A DNA stretch of 64,000 bases, from positions 373,501-437,500 of the forward strand of contig NZ_JAMCCO010000002.1 of assembly GCF_023371205.1 (NCBI RefSeq), read 5' to 3'. The notes beneath the pieces were generated by a model that saw nothing but the letters and a program-made list of their open reading frames with translations, ran no database searches and was not told the DNA's origin. Positions 55,109 to 64,000 of the stretch are shown here, piece by piece; the first letter of the stretch is position 1; each line of letters starts with the position of its first letter. This DNA comes from Parvivirga hydrogeniphila. GTDB taxonomy: Bacteria; Actinomycetota; Coriobacteriia; Anaerosomatales; Anaerosomataceae. A program made the position numbers and the translations under genes.

Positions 55109-56290
55109 ATGTCCGCACCTGCGTCCGGATCCTCCGACGTGCGCATCGTCGAGATCCCGCTCGGCGATCCGCGCATCAAGGACTTCGTCGCGTTCCACTG
55201 GAAGCACTACAAGGGCGACCCGAACTGGACGCCGCAGCTCGACGCCGACCTGCTCGGCAACAAGGTGCTGGGCATCACGGGCCTGCTGACGCCGGAGCAC
55301 CCGTACCACCGCACGGCCGAGGTGACGCACTTCATGGCGTACCGCGGCTCGGAGCCGGTCGGCCGGATCTCGGGCGCCATCAACCACCGCTTCAACGACT
55401 ACTACTACGGGAAGTACGCGTTCTTCGGCTTCTTCGAGTGCGTGAACGACCAGGCCGTGGCCAACGCGCTGTTCGATGCGGTGCGCGCGTGGGCGGCCGA
55501 GCGCGGGGCCGACACGCTGCGGGGCCCCGGCGAGTACTCCAACGCCACGCACGAGCGCCAGGCGTGCTTGATCGACGGCTTCGACACGCCGCCCACCGTC
55601 GAGCTCACGCACAACCCGCCGTACTACAAGGATCTCATCGAGGGCTACGGCTTCGAGAAGGCGATGGACTACCATGCCTACATGATCGACCTCACGCAGC
55701 CGGTGACCGACCGGCTGCACCGGCTCGCTGAGGCGGTCCGCAAACGCAAGGACATCGAGACGCGGCCCGTGGACATGTCGCGCTTCGAAGACGAGGTGCG
55801 GCTCGTCATCGACATCTACAACCTGGCGTGGGCGAACAACTGGGGCTTCCTGCCCATCACGGACTGGGAGGCCGACATGCTCGCCGAGGCGCTCAAGCCG
55901 ATCATCGACCCGGGGCTCGTGCGCTTCGCCTACCACGACGGCGAGCCGGTGGCCGTGCTCGGTGCGTTCCCCGACCCGAACTACGCCTTGCGCCCACGGT
56001 GGAAGTGGTACGGCGATTCGGACTACGTGCGCCTGGCGCGGCTGTTCGCGACGCGGCGCAAGATCCCGCGCGTGCGGCTGATGTTCTTCGGCGTCGTGCC
56101 CGGACACCGGCGCCTCGGCGCGGACGCGCTGCTGTTCGAGGAGGTGCACGCGTACGCCACGCAGCACGGCTACACGCAGTGCGAGGCCTCGATGCTGTTG
56201 GAGCACAACGAGCTCATCTTGCGCGCGTCGGAGTTCATGGGCGGCCACCGCTACAAGACCTGGCGGATCTGGGATTTGAAGCTGGGGTGA
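55109..56290 (+). CDS. GNAT-superfamily acyltransferase-like protein
   Basis: 393 residues. It opens IVEIPLGDPRIKDFVAFHWKHYKGDPNWTPQL and has GRISGAINHRFNDYYYGKYAFFGFFECVNDQAVANALFDAV, RGPGEYSNATHERQACLIDGFDTPPTVELTHNPPYYKDLIEGYGFEKAMDYHAYM and a C-terminal GNAT-like half ending RYKTWRIWDLKLG. The family is widespread and mostly annotated as hypothetical or GNAT. Bacterial ceramide synthase is also an acyl-CoA N-acyltransferase-type protein, so a lipid N-acylation role is worth considering given the SPT-like gene 4 kb away. Its 3' end is duplicated at 61772. Confidence 0.7.
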   Translation: MSAPASGSSDVRIVEIPLGDPRIKDFVAFHWKHYKGDPNWTPQLDADLLGNKVLGITGLLTPEHPYHRTAEVTHFMAYRGSEPVGRISGAINHRFNDYYYGKYAFFGFFECVNDQAVANALFDAVRAWAAERGADTLRGPGEYSNATHERQACLIDGFDTPPTVELTHNPPYYKDLIEGYGFEKAMDYHAYMIDLTQPVTDRLHRLAEAVRKRKDIETRPVDMSRFEDEVRLVIDIYNLAWANNWGFLPITDWEADMLAEALKPIIDPGLVRFAYHDGEPVAVLGAFPDPNYALRPRWKWYGDSDYVRLARLFATRRKIPRVRLMFFGVVPGHRRLGADALLFEEVHAYATQHGYTQCEASMLLEHNELILRASEFMGGHRYKTWRIWDLKLG

Positions 56291-56305
56291 GGAGCGGGCT
56301 GTCGC
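56241..56305 (+). repeat. Direct repeat, left copy (3' end of GNAT-like gene)
   Basis: 65 bp covering the last 50 bases of the GNAT-like gene and 15 bases beyond its stop. It matches 61772-61836 at 59 of 65 positions. The pair brackets an island of unlike composition, as attachment-site duplications do. Confidence 0.75.
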
Positions 56306-56748: not shown

Positions 56749-57339
56749 CTACTCCGTCGCTGTGAGCCCTCGGATCACCTCGTCGACGCGATGGCCCTCG
56801 ACGCTCTCGTCAATCGCGAAGAAGCGTATGCCGAGAGGCTCAAGTCGCTCGAGGAGAGCCTCGATGTAGACTCCTGGCAGCGGCGCGGATTCAACACGAG
56901 ACACGACTTCCGCCCATTCCGCAGGTGCGTATTCGCCTCCCCAGTGGCCCGAAGCGGACTTCGTCACGCCACAGGTCGGGCTCCCGTCGACCCCCACGAC
57001 ACCAAGGATCTCGTACCCACAGCGCCGATACTCCTGAACCTGCGCGAGGACCTCATCGGCGAGCCGCGCACAGAGTCCGCGGAATGGGACGTTCTCGTAC
57101 TGCTCTCGTGTTTGGCCCCATCTGCTCATGCCGCACGATCGAATCTCAGGACAGGGCATCTGAATGATTCCGAGGCCGAGGGCGGCCAACTGCGCGATCA
57201 ACGGGTGTACTCCCGCGTACTGGGCGAGCCCTTCCACCTTCGAGTTCGCGTTCAGCAAGCAGTGGCAAACGAACACGATCCTGCGGCTCCTGGAATCTAC
57301 CGGGTTCCGGCCTGCATCTTCTGTGGTCATCTCGGTCAT
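56749..57339 (-). CDS. TudS-related (DUF523) putative Fe-S desulfidase
   Basis: 196 residues (ATG at 57339; ATG at 57330 is also possible after GGGGAG). Motifs IVFVCHCLLNANSKVEG, IQMPCPEIRSCGMSRWGQTREQYENVPFRGLC and GVVGVDGSPTCGVTKSAS match the DUF523/TudS group; cysteines in the CHCLLN, PCPE and PTCG segments would hold a three-Cys [4Fe-4S] cluster. TudS removes sulfur from thiouracil. This subgroup is known to be encoded beside an ECF transporter substrate component, as here on the opposite strand. Substrate unproven. Confidence 0.75.
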   Translation of the reverse strand: MTEMTTEDAGRNPVDSRSRRIVFVCHCLLNANSKVEGLAQYAGVHPLIAQLAALGLGIIQMPCPEIRSCGMSRWGQTREQYENVPFRGLCARLADEVLAQVQEYRRCGYEILGVVGVDGSPTCGVTKSASGHWGGEYAPAEWAEVVSRVESAPLPGVYIEALLERLEPLGIRFFAIDESVEGHRVDEVIRGLTATE

Positions 57340-57367
57340 CTCCCCGTGACTGCCGCAAGGATTCCGC

Positions 57368-57396
57368 TTGACGATTCAGATTGTCACTTGTAGCAT
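57368..57396 (+). promoter_or_regulatory. Putative promoter of the ECF transporter operon
   Basis: TTGACG (57368-57373) and TAGCAT (57391-57396) are 17 bp apart, ideal spacing; 5 and 4 consensus matches. It lies 75 bp upstream of the S-component start. Confidence 0.5.
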
Positions 57397-57404
57397 CAGG
57401 CTGG

Positions 57405-57410
57405 ATTATA
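57405..57410 (-). promoter_or_regulatory. Putative -10 box for the TudS-like gene
   Basis: ATTATA on the plus strand is a perfect TATAAT on the minus strand, 66 bp upstream of the TudS-like start. It overlaps the control region of the divergent ECF operon, so both may answer to the same regulator. No -35 match at 17 bp. Confidence 0.45.
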
Positions 57411-57470
57411 GCTTGTATACCGGTTCATGCACGTCGACCGACCGGCATCTGGCGACGAAGGAGGGCTGTA

Positions 57471-58031
57471 GTGAACAAGCGCATTTCGCTCGTGTTCGTA
57501 CCGGTGGGAATCGGGGTCAATGTGATCGGCGGGTTGCTCGCCAGCTCGCTCAAGTTGCCCGTCTTCCTCGATACGATCGGTACGATTCTCTCCGCGGCGA
57601 TACTCGGCCCATGGTGGGGAGCGCTTACGGGAGGACTGACGAACGTCATCATGGCGCTCCAGAACCCGATGGACATGTGGTTCGCCATCGTCAACATCGC
57701 TGTCGGACTGATCATAGGCTTCATCTCCGTCAAGTACGGGTTTCAGAAGTGGCTCGTCGTGCTCATCGCCGGTCTCATCATCTCCGTCGTGGCGCCGATC
57801 ATCGGCACCACGATCGCTACATATCTATACGGTGGCCTCACGGGTGGCGGACTCGACATCTTCGTCGGCGGACTCATGAAGGCTGGTGCCGACGTGTTCA
57901 CGGCCGCGTTCATACCTAGGATCGCTTCGAACCTTGTGGACAAACTCCTCTCTGTCTTCGTGGTGATGTTCGTGATCATGGCGCTTCCGAAGACGCTTAA
58001 GGGCTGCGCGGCAGGCCCGGAGGAGGCATAG
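57471..58031 (+). CDS. ECF transporter substrate-binding (S) component
   Basis: 186 residues from the GTG preceded by GAAGGAGGG at 7-base spacing. Five to six helices; ISLVFVPVGIGVNVIGGLLASSLKLPVFLDTIGTILSAAILGPWWGALTGGLTNVIM is the S-component type N-terminus that recurs in nucleobase/vitamin uptake systems. It resembles the S component paired with TudS-related genes in clostridia. A thiolated or other nucleobase-like ligand is an inference from the neighbours. Confidence 0.8.
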   Translation: MNKRISLVFVPVGIGVNVIGGLLASSLKLPVFLDTIGTILSAAILGPWWGALTGGLTNVIMALQNPMDMWFAIVNIAVGLIIGFISVKYGFQKWLVVLIAGLIISVVAPIIGTTIATYLYGGLTGGGLDIFVGGLMKAGADVFTAAFIPRIASNLVDKLLSVFVVMFVIMALPKTLKGCAAGPEEA

Positions 58032-58055
58032 CTCCCGACATGCGGAGAGGCATCG

Positions 58056-58826
58056 TTGTCCGCTGATGTGACAGGGGGGCTCCCGACGTTCGAGCCGGGG
58101 GCCCTTCCGCATCCGATAGGGTTAGGAGCCGTCCCCGTCGGCCCGCGGATGTTCCTCGCCGCCTGTGGGATCCTCGCTATCGCACTGACACCGACGATTC
58201 TATGTCTCGGCGTTCAGCTGCTCGCGCTCCTTGCAGCGGCGACCGCCACAGGGCTCCTCGTGCCTCTCGTGCGGAGCTGGAGGGGTGTCGCCTGGGTCTC
58301 TCTGTCCTTGCTGGTCATCTACTCGTGGGCATATCCTGGCTCGACTGACCACGTGTGGATCTTCGGCGTTCAGGGCTTTCTCGCCGGCCTACTCATCGTG
58401 ATACGTCTTCTCGGGTTCGTCTCGGTCATGTATCTGTTGCTGCTATCAACGGGACCATCGGCGATCATTCGGTGGGCCGGAGATGTGAACGAGGATCTTG
58501 GCATCATGATCTCGCTCACGCTCAGCGTACTGCCTGTTATGAAGCAGCAGATGGATACCACCATCCAGGCACAGCAGGCCCGCGGGATGGCCATGGGCGG
58601 GAACCTTGTGCGCAAGATGCGCGCCTACCTTGCCGTGTTGATCCCCGTCATCGTGAAGTCGCTCGTGCGTGCTTACGGCATGGCTGCTCTGCTGCATGTC
58701 CGAGGATACAGCTCCAGCCGTAGGGTGAAGCCTCAACGCAAGGTGACCTTAGGAGCTGCAGCCTGCTATGCAGCAGGTGCGCTCTGGATCGTGGCTGTCG
58801 CGGCGACTCGGTTGGTGTTCCGATGA
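58056..58826 (+). CDS. ECF transporter transmembrane (T) component
   Basis: 256 residues from a TTG start (GGAGAGG five bases upstream). Membrane segments LAACGILAIALTPTILCLGVQLLALLAA, WVSLSLLVIYSWAY and a coupling region MDTTIQAQQARGMAMGG with the Ala-Arg-Gly motif, plus ALLHVRGYSSSRRV as the second Arg-Gly site. EcfT/CbiQ family. Links the S component to the fused ATPase; its 3' end overlaps the ATPase gene by 4 bp. Confidence 0.82.
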   Translation: MSADVTGGLPTFEPGALPHPIGLGAVPVGPRMFLAACGILAIALTPTILCLGVQLLALLAAATATGLLVPLVRSWRGVAWVSLSLLVIYSWAYPGSTDHVWIFGVQGFLAGLLIVIRLLGFVSVMYLLLLSTGPSAIIRWAGDVNEDLGIMISLTLSVLPVMKQQMDTTIQAQQARGMAMGGNLVRKMRAYLAVLIPVIVKSLVRAYGMAALLHVRGYSSSRRVKPQRKVTLGAAACYAAGALWIVAVAATRLVFR

Positions 58827-60244
58827 GCGACCGTGGAGCATACGTCACAGCCGAGGGGGTCGGCTTCACGTACACGCGTGCTCGTTCGGCGGCAATCGCA
58901 GGTATCGACTTCGTCGCCACCCCTGGCTCAGAGAATTGGATAACCGGGCCGAATGCGGCGGGTAAGAGCACTCTTCTAGGGGTCATCGCGGGTGTCGTTC
59001 CCACGGTGATAGAGGGCAATCTCACGGGACGACTGGATGTGGTTGGGGCGGGCACGGGGGGTGCCGCCACTACTTCGATGGTGTTACAAGACTCGGACGT
59101 CTATCTGTTTCGCAGCGTCTTCGACGAGATCGCGTTTCCTCTGGCTAACCGTGGGGTGTCAGGAGACGAACTGGATTCGGCGGTTCTTGGCGCACTCGAA
59201 GCGGTCGGCATCGCTCATCTCGAGTCTCGCTTGATGCACACGCTCTCGGGCGGCGAACGTCAGAAGGTCGCAGTTGCAGCGGCTCTCGCGGTCGATCCAG
59301 ACGTGCTGCTTCTGGACGAGCCCTTCGAGCAGCTCGATCCTGCATCGGCCGTTGAGGTTCTTGGACTCGCGCGCCGGCAGTCCGCTCTTGGGACGACGGT
59401 GTTCATTGCCACCCGCGAGGCCGGGCATGTGCCAGAGGGTGCCAACCGGCTTCATCTTGTCGGGGGCGTTCCCCACGTTGACGATGCCGAGCCGAGAATA
59501 GTGTGTTGGCCCAAAGCTCGCCCCCTGGGGGGCCTGCTCCTGGAGCTACGGAATCTCACCCACCGGTACGGCTCGGGTGGCGGTGTCGAGGACGTCGATC
59601 TGAGCGTGCATGAGGGTGAGTCGGTCGCGCTTCTCGGCCCGAACGGCGCTGGCAAGACGACGATCATGAAACACGCCTGCGGCCTCCTTCGGCCCGATTC
59701 AGGCGAGGTGCGCGTGCTCGACCAGGATGCGAGCGACCAACAGGTCTGGGACTTGGCGCGCGTCGTAGGAACTCTCTTTCAGAATCCCGACGACCAGATC
59801 TTCAACAGGTTGGTGGAGATGGAGGTCGCCTGGAGTCTCATCGCTCGAGGAACCGCCAAGGAGGCAGCCCTCGAGCGGGCGCACGCGGTCATGGCGGAGC
59901 TGGGCATCAGCAGGCTGGCAATGGAGAATCCCCACGAGATAACTGCATCCGAACGGCAGCTGGTGGCGTTCGCCTCGGTTCTCGTCGCGGAGCCCCGTCT
60001 CATCGTGCTCGATGAACCCACGAAAGCGCTCGACGCCGATGCTGCGGAGACTGTAGCGTCTGCAATCGAGCGACGACTTGATGATGGCGCTGGCGTGCTG
60101 CTTGTCACCCATGATGTGCGTTTCGCCGCCCGGCTCTCCAATCGTTGCGTAGTACTGGCCGACGGGCGAGTGATTGCGAACGGGCCCTCGTGTGAAGTGC
60201 TGGAAGATGCGAGCCTGCTTCGCCGTGCACGGCTTCTCACATAG
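58823..60244 (+). CDS. ECF transporter ATPase, two fused nucleotide-binding domains
   Basis: 473 residues. First domain: Walker A GPNAAGKSTLLG, VLQDSDVYLF, signature LSGGERQKVAVAAAL, LLLDEPFEQLDP. Second domain from about residue 235: LLGPNGAGKTTIMKHACG, FQNPDDQIFNRLV, ITASERQLVAFASVL, IVLDEPTKALD and VTHDVRFA. The FQNPDDQ Q-loop is the EcfA hallmark. The second signature ITASERQ departs from LSGGQ, so one of the two ATP sites may be weak or inactive. Confidence 0.88.
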   Translation: MSDRGAYVTAEGVGFTYTRARSAAIAGIDFVATPGSENWITGPNAAGKSTLLGVIAGVVPTVIEGNLTGRLDVVGAGTGGAATTSMVLQDSDVYLFRSVFDEIAFPLANRGVSGDELDSAVLGALEAVGIAHLESRLMHTLSGGERQKVAVAAALAVDPDVLLLDEPFEQLDPASAVEVLGLARRQSALGTTVFIATREAGHVPEGANRLHLVGGVPHVDDAEPRIVCWPKARPLGGLLLELRNLTHRYGSGGGVEDVDLSVHEGESVALLGPNGAGKTTIMKHACGLLRPDSGEVRVLDQDASDQQVWDLARVVGTLFQNPDDQIFNRLVEMEVAWSLIARGTAKEAALERAHAVMAELGISRLAMENPHEITASERQLVAFASVLVAEPRLIVLDEPTKALDADAAETVASAIERRLDDGAGVLLVTHDVRFAARLSNRCVVLADGRVIANGPSCEVLEDASLLRRARLLT

Positions 60245-60401: not shown

Positions 60402-61742
60402 ATGAACGAATCCAAGAAGCGCACGTACATCGTCTATCTGGCAGGTCCCATCACCGGCTGCAATGACGACCAGAAAAACCGGTGGCGCAAGGAGTTCAAG
60501 CAGATCGTCGGGAAGCGCCGAAACGATGTCGAGTTCCACGACCCGACGGAGTGGAGCACCGACTGGAAACCGCTTCGGGAGACATTCCTTCTTCGAACCG
60601 TCGATGTGGTCGTCGCGAACATGTGGAAGGAGTCGATCGGCACCACCGTCGGCATCATGCAGGCGCTCGACCTGGGCAAGCCCGTGATACTCATCGACCC
60701 CTGCTATCTCAACAGCAAGATCCTTGAGGGCTTGCTGGGCGACAAGCCCGCCCGCTCGGTCCAGGAGGCGGCTGACCGCCTGAACGACCTGCTTGATCGG
60801 ACTGGGGACGTGTTCGTGCAGAAGAGCACCGGAGAGGTCGTCCCTTTCGAACTGACCAAGCTCGTCGCATCGATCCAGACCGCGTGCGCAGCGGCGCACA
60901 TACCCGAGGACCAGTTCGCGAACCAGATCTCCAGAGCGGTTCTGCAATCGCTAGAAACGTCCGCCGATAGCGAGCGGCCCGTCCCGACGAGCGCGATCAG
61001 AGGCGCTATCTTCGAAGTCTTGGAAGACTACAGCACCAGCGCACGGTACGACGCCGATATCCGCCATCTCGCGGCGGCGGTGAAACGAGAGTGGGAGAAG
61101 AAAGAGAACTACAAGCGCGAAGACGCCATCGTCGAGAAGACGGAGGCCGATCTGGCCGCAGCTCGAGCGGAGGCCGAGCAATACAAGGAACTATGGATGG
61201 CGGCAGCGGCCAGTCGGAAAGCGGCCCTCCCCAGCGACGAGCCGAGCTCTGGACCCAGCAGCCTCCGTACACCGCGTTTGCGCACTCTTGAAGAAGCGGT
61301 CCGTTTGGCTGAAGAGAAATGGCGGGATTCTCTTGAGATTCTGCCATCTGCGCGCAGGAGTGCGCGCAAGTACGACAAGTGGAGAGACGCCGACAAGGTC
61401 TTCGAACTCTTGGATCTGCTTGGCGAATGCGCATTCGAGCGGATGGTGGACAAGTCCGAGCGGCAAGTCGGACCGACGCTCGACCAGATGCTCAAGCAGC
61501 GGCAGCGCGGCTTCGAGTATGCCCCGACCGAAAGCAAAGAGACCATGGACCGATACGGACGGGAACGGACATTCTCCGGCCGAGACGGCAAGCAGTGGGT
61601 TTGTAAACAGCACCTGAAGATCGGGACGCGCGGAGGTGCGGAAAGGCTGCTGCGCATCTACTTCTGCGAGGACCCTGCCACCGGTCGCATCGTGATCGGG
61701 CATGTCGGGAAGCATCTGACGACGTACACGGGGGACTCGTGA
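60402..61742 (+). CDS. Multidomain protein: nucleoside 2-deoxyribosyltransferase-like fold, ATP-cone, coiled coil, unknown C-terminus
   Basis: 446 residues, ATG after GAGGGGGGAAG. Residues 9-100 resemble nucleoside 2-deoxyribosyltransferases: YLAGPITG (12-19), Asp68 in DVVVANMW, and SIGTTVGIMQALDLGKPVILID. The catalytic Glu expected in GTxxExG is Gly84 here. Residues about 136-235 form an ATP-cone (VQKSTGEVVPFELTKLVASI). A Lys/Glu/Ala-rich coiled coil follows (about 240-285), then a C-terminal domain ending IYFCEDPATGRIVIGHVGKHL that vaguely recalls small RelE-like toxins. It may sense or process nucleotides; placed between an uptake locus and a DISARM gene, a defence role is possible. Function unknown. 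Confidence 0.6.
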   Translation: MNESKKRTYIVYLAGPITGCNDDQKNRWRKEFKQIVGKRRNDVEFHDPTEWSTDWKPLRETFLLRTVDVVVANMWKESIGTTVGIMQALDLGKPVILIDPCYLNSKILEGLLGDKPARSVQEAADRLNDLLDRTGDVFVQKSTGEVVPFELTKLVASIQTACAAAHIPEDQFANQISRAVLQSLETSADSERPVPTSAIRGAIFEVLEDYSTSARYDADIRHLAAAVKREWEKKENYKREDAIVEKTEADLAAARAEAEQYKELWMAAAASRKAALPSDEPSSGPSSLRTPRLRTLEEAVRLAEEKWRDSLEILPSARRSARKYDKWRDADKVFELLDLLGECAFERMVDKSERQVGPTLDQMLKQRQRGFEYAPTESKETMDRYGRERTFSGRDGKQWVCKQHLKIGTRGGAERLLRIYFCEDPATGRIVIGHVGKHLTTYTGDS

Positions 61743-61771: not shown

Positions 61772-61836
61772 GCGGCTACCGCTGCAAGACCGGGCGGATC
61801 TGGGATCTGAAGTTGGGGTGAGGGGCGGGCTGTCGC
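61772..61836 (+). repeat. Direct repeat, right copy (fragment of GNAT-like gene 3' end)
   Basis: 59 of 65 bases match 56241-56305. The frame reads LRGYRCKTGRIWDLKLG and stop, against GGHRYKTWRIWDLKLG in the intact gene, with no gene body upstream. It ends 60 bp before the drmD start. Confidence 0.75.
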
Positions 61837-61895: not shown

Positions 61896-64000
61896 ATGGG
61901 GAACACCGTCGTGCCACGTCCAGGCATGTTCGCGGTGGTACGTAACCGCCGCGGCGTCATCGCTGCCGTCGAGCCGTTCGACGGTGAGCACGGGCGGACG
62001 CACGCGGTCACAATCGAGTACCGCGACGAGCTCTTTCCTCCGAGCCAGACGCTGATCTGGGAGCTTGAGGGGGCGCACGCCTCGGTTCTTGAACCGAACG
62101 CCCTGCCGGACCCGATGCGCGGCGAACCGATGCCGCCAGAGGACTTCGACGCACTCGTGCGGGCAGCTCGCTGGACGAGCGCGATGCCGTACCTCGATCC
62201 GGACGGCTCCGGTCCGCTCGGCCGGCTCCCGTTCCGAAGCCCGTTCCACGCTGCGGTCGAAGTCGACGACTACCAGCTCGTGCCACTGCTCAAGGCACTC
62301 AGGATGCCGCGCGTGCGCCTCCTGATTGCAGACGACGTGGGCCTCGGAAAGACAGTGGAGGCCGGCCTTATCCTCTCCGAGCTCCTCATCCGGCGACGCA
62401 TCCAGCGCGTGCTGATTCTGACCCCGGCATCCCTACGGCTCCAATGGCGCGACGAGATGCGGGAGAAGTTCTCGCTCTCCTTCGAGCTCGTCGACCGTGA
62501 GCAGACCGAACAGCTCCGCCGCCGCCTAGGCATGGATGCGAACCCGTGGAGAGCGTTCCCCAGGATCATCGCATCGTACCACTACTTGCGCCAGCCTGAC
62601 ATCCTCGAGCAGTTCAACGCGGCGTGCAGAACACCGGACGACTCGCCGCGGCTCCCGTGGGATCTGCTCATCGTAGACGAATGCCACAATCTCATGCCGT
62701 CTTCGTTCGGCAAGGACTCTGACCTCGCAGAGATGCTTCGCATCATCGCACCGCGCTTCGAGCATCGGTTGTTCCTCTCAGCTACGCCGCACAACGGTCA
62801 CACGCGCAGCTTCACGGGTCTGTTGGAGATACTCGACCCAGTGCGCTTCAGCGCTACGGACGAACTTAGGCCAGCAGAGCGCGCTCGTGTCGAGCAGCTC
62901 GTCATCCGGCGCCTGAAGCGCGAGATCAACGACCGGACCGACCCACCAAAGTTCTGCCGGCGCCTGGATCCCATCGCTCTCAGGCTCGACTTCTCACCAG
63001 AAGAAGCGGCGTTGACAGAAGCCTTCGACAAGTTCCGAGCGGCCATGCGGTCGTGGATCTCCCAAGGAGACGCGAAGAGGCGTCGTGCGGGCCACTTTGC
63101 CGTAGAGGTGCTCGGAAAGCGGCTCCTCTCCTGTCCCGTCGCGTTCGCCGATTCGTGGCGCCGGTGCAAAGAAGGGCTCGCGGCGCAGCAAGCGGCGACC
63201 GAGGCCGACGTCGACGTGGCGCGCAAGAGCGTCGAACGCGACACCGACGACGACCGCGAGGCCGCATCGCGCGAATCGGTCGCTGCAACGGTGGTAGGCG
63301 CATGGCTGGTGAAGGCAGCCCCGCACCTTGAAAACCACATCGCGACGATCGATCGGGCGCTTGCGCGACTCGGCCTCGACAGCGACCGCGCCGACAGCTT
63401 CGCCGACCTCGACCCCGTCCGCGACGCACGCTTCGACGCGCTCGTCACGCTCATCGAAAAGCTCCTGCGCTCAGATGGCCGCTGGCGCGACGACGAGCGC
63501 CTCGTCGTATTCACCGAGTACAAGACGACGCTCGACTACCTGGCCCGCCGACTGAGAGAGCGTTACGAGGACAAACGCGTCCTGACGCTCTTCGGTGGCA
63601 TGGACGACGCCGACCGCGAGGCAGTGAAACGGGCGTTCAACAATCCCGCAGACGCCGTGCGCGTGCTCATCGCAACCGACGCAGCCGCGGAAGGATTGAA
63701 CCTCCAGCAGACCGCACGATACCTCTTGCACTTCGACTTGCCCTGGAACCCAAGCAAGACCGAGCAGCGGAACGGCCGACTCGATCGCCACGGTCAGGCT
63801 CGCGACGTGCAGATCTTCCACTTTGCCAGCGAGACTGACGACGATCTTCGGTTCCTAGCGCACGTGATGCGGAAAGCGAACGACATCCGCGAAGACCTGG
63901 GCAGCGCGAACGAGCTCTTTGACACCGTGATCCATCGGAAGCTCATTGACGGTGAGTCCATGGGTGCGGTCGAACACGACCTTGATCGTGGGCTTACCGT
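61896..64000 (+). CDS. drmD: DISARM SNF2-like helicase DrmD, 3' end outside window
   Basis: 701 residues are visible and the frame is open at base 64000. It starts at an ATG after GGGAGGCGAC. The N-terminus FAVVRNRRGVIAAVEPFDG, then YQLVPLLKALRMPRVRLLIADDVGLGKTVEAGLILSELL in outline with Lys152 of the Walker A, DECH at 261-264, SATPHNGHTRSFTGLLEILDPVRF, and the helicase C motifs VVFTEYKTTLDYL, LIATDAAAEGLNLQ and EQRNGRLDRHGQ. This layout is that of DrmD, the marker helicase of class 1 DISARM phage defence. The remaining drm genes should follow downstream. Confidence 0.85.
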   Translation, partial: MGNTVVPRPGMFAVVRNRRGVIAAVEPFDGEHGRTHAVTIEYRDELFPPSQTLIWELEGAHASVLEPNALPDPMRGEPMPPEDFDALVRAARWTSAMPYLDPDGSGPLGRLPFRSPFHAAVEVDDYQLVPLLKALRMPRVRLLIADDVGLGKTVEAGLILSELLIRRRIQRVLILTPASLRLQWRDEMREKFSLSFELVDREQTEQLRRRLGMDANPWRAFPRIIASYHYLRQPDILEQFNAACRTPDDSPRLPWDLLIVDECHNLMPSSFGKDSDLAEMLRIIAPRFEHRLFLSATPHNGHTRSFTGLLEILDPVRFSATDELRPAERARVEQLVIRRLKREINDRTDPPKFCRRLDPIALRLDFSPEEAALTEAFDKFRAAMRSWISQGDAKRRRAGHFAVEVLGKRLLSCPVAFADSWRRCKEGLAAQQAATEADVDVARKSVERDTDDDREAASRESVAATVVGAWLVKAAPHLENHIATIDRALARLGLDSDRADSFADLDPVRDARFDALVTLIEKLLRSDGRWRDDERLVVFTEYKTTLDYLARRLRERYEDKRVLTLFGGMDDADREAVKRAFNNPADAVRVLIATDAAAEGLNLQQTARYLLHFDLPWNPSKTEQRNGRLDRHGQARDVQIFHFASETDDDLRFLAHVMRKANDIREDLGSANELFDTVIHRKLIDGESMGAVEHDLDRGLT

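What the first reader, a model, noticed from the sequence alone, without database searches (positions are those of the whole stretch)
60402..61742. Nucleotide-sensing multidomain protein with a deoxyribosyltransferase-like fold lacking the catalytic glutamate
The sequence shows a YLAGPITG-type N-terminal domain, an ATP-cone, a coiled coil and a C-terminal domain that I cannot name. In nucleoside 2-deoxyribosyltransferases the nucleophile is the Glu of GTxxExG; here that place is Gly84. Deoxyribosyltransferase-like and SLOG-type folds have been proposed as nucleotide effectors or sensors in bacterial conflict systems, and ATP-cones bind (d)ATP. Combined with the position next to drmD, the protein could be a nucleotide-triggered defence effector or a regulator of nucleotide pools. 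I do not know a described system with this architecture.
Basis: partly seen in the sequence, partly recalled or inferred. Interest (0 to 1): 0.85.

Follow-up and report, generated by a model that had tools for sequence, protein, structure and literature searches.

The report
Nucleotide-sensing protein with RNase-toxin-like tail
A bacterial gene in a hotspot for virus-defence genes encodes a protein that joins two nucleotide-binding modules, one of them a dead enzyme, to a domain predicted to fold like RNA-cutting toxins, so it may be a one-protein alarm that stops the cell when its nucleotide pools are disturbed, for example by a phage.

Summary
Window 60402-61742 (+) encodes 446 residues with a nucleoside deoxyribosyltransferase/DNPH1-type domain (8-112), an ATP-cone (136-212), a 58-residue helix and a C-terminal domain. 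In register with human DNPH1, the nucleophile Glu104 is Gly84 and Asp80 is Glu60. Among nine family members found, only one has Glu and only one has Asp, and none has both, while pocket residues (Gly-Pro, Asp-Pro, ANMWK-x-S-x-GT) are invariant. Phage relatives keep the Glu in 12 of 12. This looks like a family-wide pseudoenzyme. The unnamed C-terminus is predicted to have the RelE/YafQ/YoeB (BECR) RNase-toxin fold (all 50 listed structural matches), with nearly invariant His404, Arg418, His434 and His438; it matches the C-termini of PADLOC HEC-07 and NsnC. I read the protein as a self-contained nucleotide-gated RNase effector; gating, RNase activity and defence are inferred. The link to drmD is weaker than it looks: a 65-bp repeat of a core gene's 3' end lies between them, so they probably arrived separately, although the site is a variable, defence-rich hotspot. 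Other copies: two loci beside defence genes, others ordinary. New variant of a known kind (multidomain BECR toxins); the sensor pairing appears undescribed.

The parts
60402..61742 (+). the gene: 446-residue protein, NDT/DNPH1-like pseudoenzyme + ATP-cone + long helix + RelE/YafQ-fold domain
60423..60737 (+). N-terminal NDT/DNPH1-fold domain, residues 8-112; catalytic Glu replaced by Gly84 (60651-60653), catalytic Asp position is Glu60
60807..61037 (+). ATP-cone, residues 136-212
   Evidence: Pfam PF03477 E 2e-7; structural Z 13.6 to ATP-cones of NrdD 9d3x and NrdB 5olk, whose aligned range is 134-246
61053..61226 (+). 58-residue continuous helix (218-275), coiled-coil linker
   Evidence: DSSP on the AlphaFold2 model
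61281..61730 (+). C-terminal domain, residues 294-443; residues 306-441 have the predicted RelE/YafQ/YoeB (BECR) fold; conserved His404 (61611-61613), Arg418 (61653-61655), His434 (61701-61703), His438 (61713-61715)
56241..56305 (+). direct repeat copy 1: last codons of the core gene 55109-56290 plus 15 bp
   Evidence: 65 bp, 91% identical to copy 2
61772..61836 (+). direct repeat copy 2, between the gene and drmD; right boundary of the 5.5-kb segment that holds the gene
56749..60244 (.). other genes of the same repeat-bounded segment: CD3072 TudS-related desulfidase (-), CD3073 ECF S component (+), CbiQ-like T component (+), fused ECF ATPases (+)
61896..63998 (+). drmD-family SNF2 helicase (continues beyond the window), first gene after repeat copy 2; listed as context, not as part of the same system

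Best explanation
The protein is a self-contained, nucleotide-gated growth-arrest effector. Its N-terminal NDT/DNPH1-type pocket has lost catalysis and now only binds a ligand, most likely a (deoxy)nucleotide because the Ser that contacts the 5'-phosphate in DNPH1 is kept. The ATP-cone reads ATP against dATP, as in ribonucleotide reductases. A long coiled coil joins the sensors and probably makes the protein a dimer or higher oligomer. The C-terminal RelE/YafQ-fold domain is the effector, held off in the resting state and released when nucleotide pools change, as when a phage degrades host DNA or floods the cell with dNTPs; it would then cut mRNA, probably on ribosomes. Shown by computation: gene, domain order, catalytic-residue loss with pocket conservation, predicted fold and conserved residues of the C-terminus. 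Inferred: ligand identity, gating, RNase activity, role against phage.
For: N-domain fold at Z 13-15 to NDT/DNPH1/MilB. Catalytic positions eroded in the family, with residues 15-16, 19-20, 28-29, 47-48, 68, 72-76, 78, 80-81 identical in all nine members; phage relatives keep Glu 12/12 and Asp 11/12. ATP-cone above Pfam cut-off in the window protein, L033, L034 and L036, with K141, G144, F149 and K153 kept wherever that region is present. C-terminal model (pLDDT 87.7, pTM 0.85): all 50 listed VIA rows are RelE-superfamily toxins or carry that fold, best Z 7.7 over 86 of 90 residues of YafQ. His404, Gly408, Gly436 and His438 identical in 32/32, Arg418 30/32, His434 29/32 of diverse C-terminal relatives. 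Match to PADLOC HEC-07 (4.7e-18) and NsnC (4.9e-18). Gerdes 2025 (PMC11980606) describes PtuZ: catalytically dead N-domain, helical linker, BECR-fold C-terminus. Same site carries other gene sets in sister genomes; defence genes beside the copies of G767 and G781.
Against: RelE kinship is by fold only: Foldseek E >= 0.13, no hhalign match to YafQ, profile alignment to YafQ, RelE and YoeB no better than shuffles. Z below 8 can be a shared arrangement. One member (L033) keeps Glu at position 84, and one (L084) lacks His434 and His438. Five of eight other loci show no defence genes. No antitoxin-like partner or immunity gene was seen, so the resting state must be self-inhibited. In L036 the C-terminus is different.
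Confidence: 0.5

Rival explanations
1. Nucleotide-regulated RNA- or DNA-binding regulator: the C-terminal fold binds nucleic acid or the ribosome without cutting it, and the protein adjusts translation or expression to nucleotide supply. It came in with the neighbouring CD3072/CD3073 ECF transporter genes and has nothing to do with phage.
For: The gene shares a repeat-bounded 5.5-kb segment with ECF transporter and desulfidase genes. Copies in G438, G761, G773 and G759/L033 lie among ordinary genes. NrdR shows that ATP-cones can serve regulators (PDB 7p37).
Against: Very strong conservation of His404/Arg418/His438 in a domain with an RNase-toxin fold, spread among unrelated N-termini. The ECF genes were not seen near any other copy that I read.
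Confidence: 0.2
2. Active nucleotide-degrading enzyme of the NDT/DNPH1 kind, with an allosteric ATP-cone, that depletes or sanitises deoxynucleotides; the C-terminus is a binding module.
For: Fold and pocket are those of enzymes; L033 keeps Glu at the nucleophile position; Tyr12 and an acid at position 60 remain in the window protein.
Against: The window protein has Gly at the nucleophile position; no member has both the Asp and the Glu of DNPH1, whereas phage relatives of the same domain keep both in 11 of 12.
Confidence: 0.1
3. Accessory part of the adjacent drmD and IIG-like methyltransferase system, encoded in the same operon.
For: Same strand, 152 bp upstream of drmD; no terminator-like site between them.
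Against: A 65-bp repeat of a core gene's 3' end lies between them, marking a junction of insertions; no other copy found next to drmD.
Confidence: 0.07
4. C-terminus is a ParE-like (gyrase) or otherwise non-ribosomal BECR toxin rather than an mRNase; gating as in the best explanation.
For: ParE toxins share the fold and also appear in the match list.
Against: Nearly invariant His and Arg suggest catalysis; Gerdes 2025 states that gyrase inhibitors of this fold lack the RNase catalytic residues (PMC11980606).
Confidence: 0.08

Closest known systems
PtuZ of ptuXYZ (Gerdes 2025, PMC11980606), probably the same as PADLOC NsnC
   Same: Catalytically dead N-terminal domain, helical linker and C-terminal BECR-fold domain; the C-terminal sequence matches NsnC at E 4.9e-18.
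   Different: PtuZ has a PIN-like N-domain and stands in an operon with a DUF262 protein and a PtuA-like ATPase; here the N-part is a pseudo-NDT plus ATP-cone and no such partners are present. That NsnC equals PtuZ is my inference.
HEC-07 (PADLOC, Hma-embedded candidate)
   Same: Shares the helix and C-terminal domain (residues 169-442 with profile 281-551 of 553).
   Different: The first 280 positions of the HEC-07 profile do not match the NDT/ATP-cone part.
DNPH1/Rcl, MilB and nucleoside 2-deoxyribosyltransferases
   Same: Fold and pocket frame of residues 8-135, including the phosphate-contact Ser (Ser78) and Tyr12.
   Different: Nucleophile Glu is Gly84 and Asp80 is Glu60; multidomain context.
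ATP-cone proteins (class I/III ribonucleotide reductases, NrdR)
   Same: Complete ATP-cone with core residues kept.
   Different: Not attached to a reductase or to a zinc ribbon; joined to a helix and a RelE-fold domain.
YafQ, YoeB and RelE mRNA interferases
   Same: Predicted fold of residues 306-441; nearly invariant His and Arg in the last strands.
   Different: No detectable sequence similarity, extra helices inside the domain, no antitoxin gene, fused to sensor domains.

Membership tests
Nucleoside deoxyribosyltransferase / DNPH1 enzymes | Rossmann-like NDT fold | tested here: met
   VIA Z 15.4 (7m5h), 14.9 (2a0k), about 13 for DNPH1 over 110-127 residues
Nucleoside deoxyribosyltransferase / DNPH1 enzymes | Nucleophile Glu (DNPH1 Glu104) | tested here: not met
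   Gly84 in the window protein; Glu in 1 of 9 members, 12 of 12 phage relatives
Nucleoside deoxyribosyltransferase / DNPH1 enzymes | Catalytic Asp (DNPH1 Asp80) | tested here: not met
   Glu60 in the window protein; Asp in 1 of 9 members
ATP-cone | Pfam PF03477 above its gathering score | tested here: met
   31.9 bits against 25.8; also L033, L034, L036
ATP-cone | Binds ATP and dATP | not testable with these tools
   needs a binding assay; K141, G144, F149, K153 are kept
RelE/ParE (BECR) superfamily | BECR fold | tested here: met
   AlphaFold2 model only: the 50 listed VIA rows are RelE-superfamily toxins or carry that fold, Z 4.6-7.7, 80-93 residues; Foldseek weak
RelE/ParE (BECR) superfamily | Sequence match to a RelE-superfamily family | tested here: not met
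   no Pfam RelE-type hit; hhalign to YafQ probability 0.2; profile alignment not above shuffles
RelE/ParE (BECR) superfamily | Ribosome-dependent mRNA cleavage or gyrase inhibition | not testable with these tools
   needs expression and RNA mapping
Type II toxin-antitoxin module | Adjacent antitoxin gene | tested here: not met
   157 bp upstream gap, then an ECF ATPase gene; downstream drmD
DISARM | drmA, drmB, drmC beside drmD | tested here: inconclusive
   neighbours scanned are an IIG-like methyltransferase (also matches DrmMI), DarTG, HEC-05, AbiEii, MTase, HerA and a DruE-like helicase; the only MZB domain in the genome lies in the DruE-like helicase; not every gene was scanned
NsnABC / ptuXYZ | DUF262 and ATPase partner genes in one operon | tested here: not met
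   neighbours are ECF transporter genes and drmD

The most novel reading that the evidence does not exclude
A single-protein abortive-infection system in which a dead DNPH1/NDT-type domain senses a deoxynucleotide, perhaps a phage-modified one such as a hydroxymethylated dNMP, together with an ATP-cone that reads dATP against ATP, and directly switches on a fused ribosome-targeting RNase: infection detected through the nucleotide pool itself, with no second messenger and no antitoxin.
Probability: 0.25. Interest if true: 0.85.

Novelty: new variant of a known kind. Interest (0 to 1): 0.62.

Why it matters
Many defence effectors destroy nucleotides; few are known to sense the cell's own nucleotide pool directly. 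An ATP-cone fused to an RNase-toxin fold would make a reader of the dATP/ATP balance into a death or dormancy switch. The result also gives a predicted fold and probable active-site residues for the uncharacterised C-terminal domain shared by PADLOC's HEC-07 and NsnC families, which makes the whole group testable by point mutation.

Tried and rejected
Close-relative search of genome contigs with the single protein found nothing; the alignment found four loci. No phage-genome relative of the whole protein and none in viral contigs with full-length patterns. The C-terminal profile found no solved structure by sequence. hhalign to E. coli YafQ and profile alignment with shuffles to YafQ, RelE and YoeB failed, so kinship to RelE rests on fold; I also aligned Arg418/His438 by eye to RelE Arg61/Arg81 (same spacing of 20), which that test does not support as significant. 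BFVD fold search of the C-terminus gave no match. AdiA, hydroxyethylthiazole kinase and STING rows in the full-model searches were set aside as generic Rossmann-like matches. Literature: no paper in the library joins deoxyribosyltransferase and ATP-cone. NsnC could not be found in print under that name. Rejected: DISARM membership, because no drmA/B/C was recognised and a repeat junction lies between the gene and drmD. The 'Glu is lost' claim was checked for alignment error and holds in three alignments.

Full report
WHAT IS THERE. The gene at 60402-61742 (+) encodes 446 residues. It starts after a strong purine-rich ribosome site and has third-position GC of 0.77. AlphaFold2 on a 22-row alignment gave mean pLDDT 88.7. 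The model has an alpha/beta domain at about 8-112, an ATP-cone at about 136-212, one unbroken helix 218-275, a floppy stretch 279-288 and a C-terminal alpha+beta domain to about 441.

N-DOMAIN. Pfam hits are below threshold, but the family profile finds YtoQ and DNPH1/Rcl among solved structures (E 3.4e-4 to 8e-4). The model matches T. brucei NDT (2a0k, Z 14.9), an E. faecalis relative (7m5h, Z 15.4), YtoQ, MilB and DNPH1. In the HMMER register with DNPH1, the window's Ser78, Glu60 and Gly84 stand at human DNPH1 Ser98, Asp80 and Glu104, with a constant offset of 20; that numbering and the role of Ser98 rest on my knowledge of the family. Phage relatives of this domain (L044-L062) carry SIGTxxE: Glu in 12/12 and Asp in 11/12. 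I found nine distinct members of the family with this N-domain: the window copy, L033 (= L081), L034, L035, L036, L082, L083, L084, L085. In that order position 84 is G, E, D, D, G, G, S, G, G and position 60 is E, G, Q, Q, D, E, E, E, E. No member has both acids. In contrast Gly15-Pro16, Gly19-Cys20, Trp28-Arg29, Asp47-Pro48, Asp68, Ala72-Asn73-Met74-Trp75-Lys76, Ser78 and Gly80-Thr81 are identical in all nine. Selection keeps the pocket and not the chemistry: the mark of a sensing pseudoenzyme.

ATP-CONE. PF03477 scores above its cut-off in the window protein, L033, L034 and L036. The structure matches the ATP-cones of NrdD and NrdB at Z 13.6. The genome has two further ATP-cones, one in a 153-residue frame that fits NrdR.

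C-DOMAIN. Residues 294-443 match PADLOC's NsnC and HEC-07 (E about 5e-18). The domain is found in roughly 8% of genomes sampled from the same class (32 of 398 at E <= 0.001, a few of them ATP-cone-only hits), mostly at the end of proteins of 400-700 residues whose N-terminal parts differ. Modelled alone (pLDDT 87.7, pTM 0.85), its best matches are the toxins YafQ, HP0894-type, YoeB, RelE, ParE and HigB: the 50 listed VIA rows belong to that superfamily or carry that fold, top Z 7.7 over 86 of the 90 residues of YafQ. Foldseek also ranks RelE toxins first, without significance. Sequence methods do not see the link, so this is a fold-level claim. In 32 diverse relatives His404, Gly408, Gly436 and His438 are identical in all, Arg418 in 30 and His434 in 29; the family member L084, not in that set, lacks His434 and His438. 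In YafQ, H50, H63, H87, D67 and F91 are needed for toxicity (PMC6529426), with H87 at the end of the last strand, where His438 lies here by my reading of the model's strands. Gerdes 2025 describes PtuZ with the same plan: an N-domain without catalytic residues, a helical linker and a BECR C-terminus, in an operon with a DUF262 protein and an ATPase (PMC11980606). NsnC probably is PtuZ, since the NsnA profile touches a DUF262-type protein; this is inference.

SURROUNDINGS. drmD is real. Beyond the window follow an IIG-like 1751-residue methyltransferase, DarT, DarG, HEC-05, AbiEii, a methyltransferase, HerA and a DruE-like helicase of 1826 residues. No drmA, drmB or drmC was recognised. Between the gene and drmD lies a 65-bp sequence, 91% identical to the last codons of the core gene 55109-56290. 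Same-genus genomes keep that core gene and then diverge; G005 rejoins about 30 kb further along this genome, with what I read by eye as type I restriction genes in between, and G003 has a helicase/methyltransferase set. So this is a variable hotspot, and the repeats bound a 5.5-kb piece that holds CD3072, CD3073, the ECF T component and ATPases and our gene. drmD lies outside that piece. The gene's position therefore argues for a mobile, defence-rich setting, but not for a shared system with drmD.

OTHER LOCI. G767: TerY, PP2C and kinase triad within 7 kb on one side and PDC-S01 on the other. G781: HsdR and a TIR protein, but the copy is truncated. G626: a REase-ARP nuclease 4 kb away. G438, G761, G773, G759/L033 and L036: ordinary genes or toxin-antitoxin-like fragments. 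No control for chance proximity was run.

MECHANISM. The most economical reading is two ligand-binding modules that gate a toxin fold through a long helix: a nucleotide-gated RNase. The steps ligand, gate, cleavage and phage trigger are inferred. I give 0.5 to this class of mechanism and 0.25 to the specific phage-sensing version.

NOVELTY. Multidomain BECR toxins and dead N-domains on them are known. The pairing with a pseudo-NDT and an ATP-cone is not in Pfam, NCBIfam, PADLOC or PHROGs as a family, nor in the papers searched.

Noticed in passing
56241-56305 and 61772-61836: 65-bp direct repeat: the second copy is a remnant of the 3' end of the core gene 55109-56290, marking an integration hotspot at that gene's end; same-genus genomes carry different inserts at the site.
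   Followed up: partly
56749-60244: CD3072 TudS-related desulfidase and CD3073 ECF transporter set (S, T, fused ATPases) inside the repeat-bounded insert; substrate unknown.
   Followed up: partly
L002 1657-6912 (just beyond the window end): 1751-residue Eco57I-type methyltransferase that matches a IIG model at 1326 bits and DrmMI at 431 bits, directly after drmD: a possible two-gene helicase-methyltransferase system without drmA/B/C.
   Followed up: no
L099 3754-9234 with L002 12730-17332: DruE-like 1826-residue helicase with MZB domain, after a HerA-type ATPase, an unassigned 388-residue protein and a methyltransferase: looks like an unclassified YprA-family defence operon.
   Followed up: no
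L036 2252-3403: Phycisphaerales contig with the same pseudo-NDT and ATP-cone but a different C-terminus (contig end): the sensor pair may be swapped between effectors.
   Followed up: no
L004, L005, L008, L010-L015, L021, L022, L064-L070: The RelE-fold C-terminal domain with conserved His/Arg ends many 400-700-residue proteins with unrelated, mostly unnamed N-termini in Actinomycetota, proteobacterial plasmids and viral contigs.
   Followed up: partly
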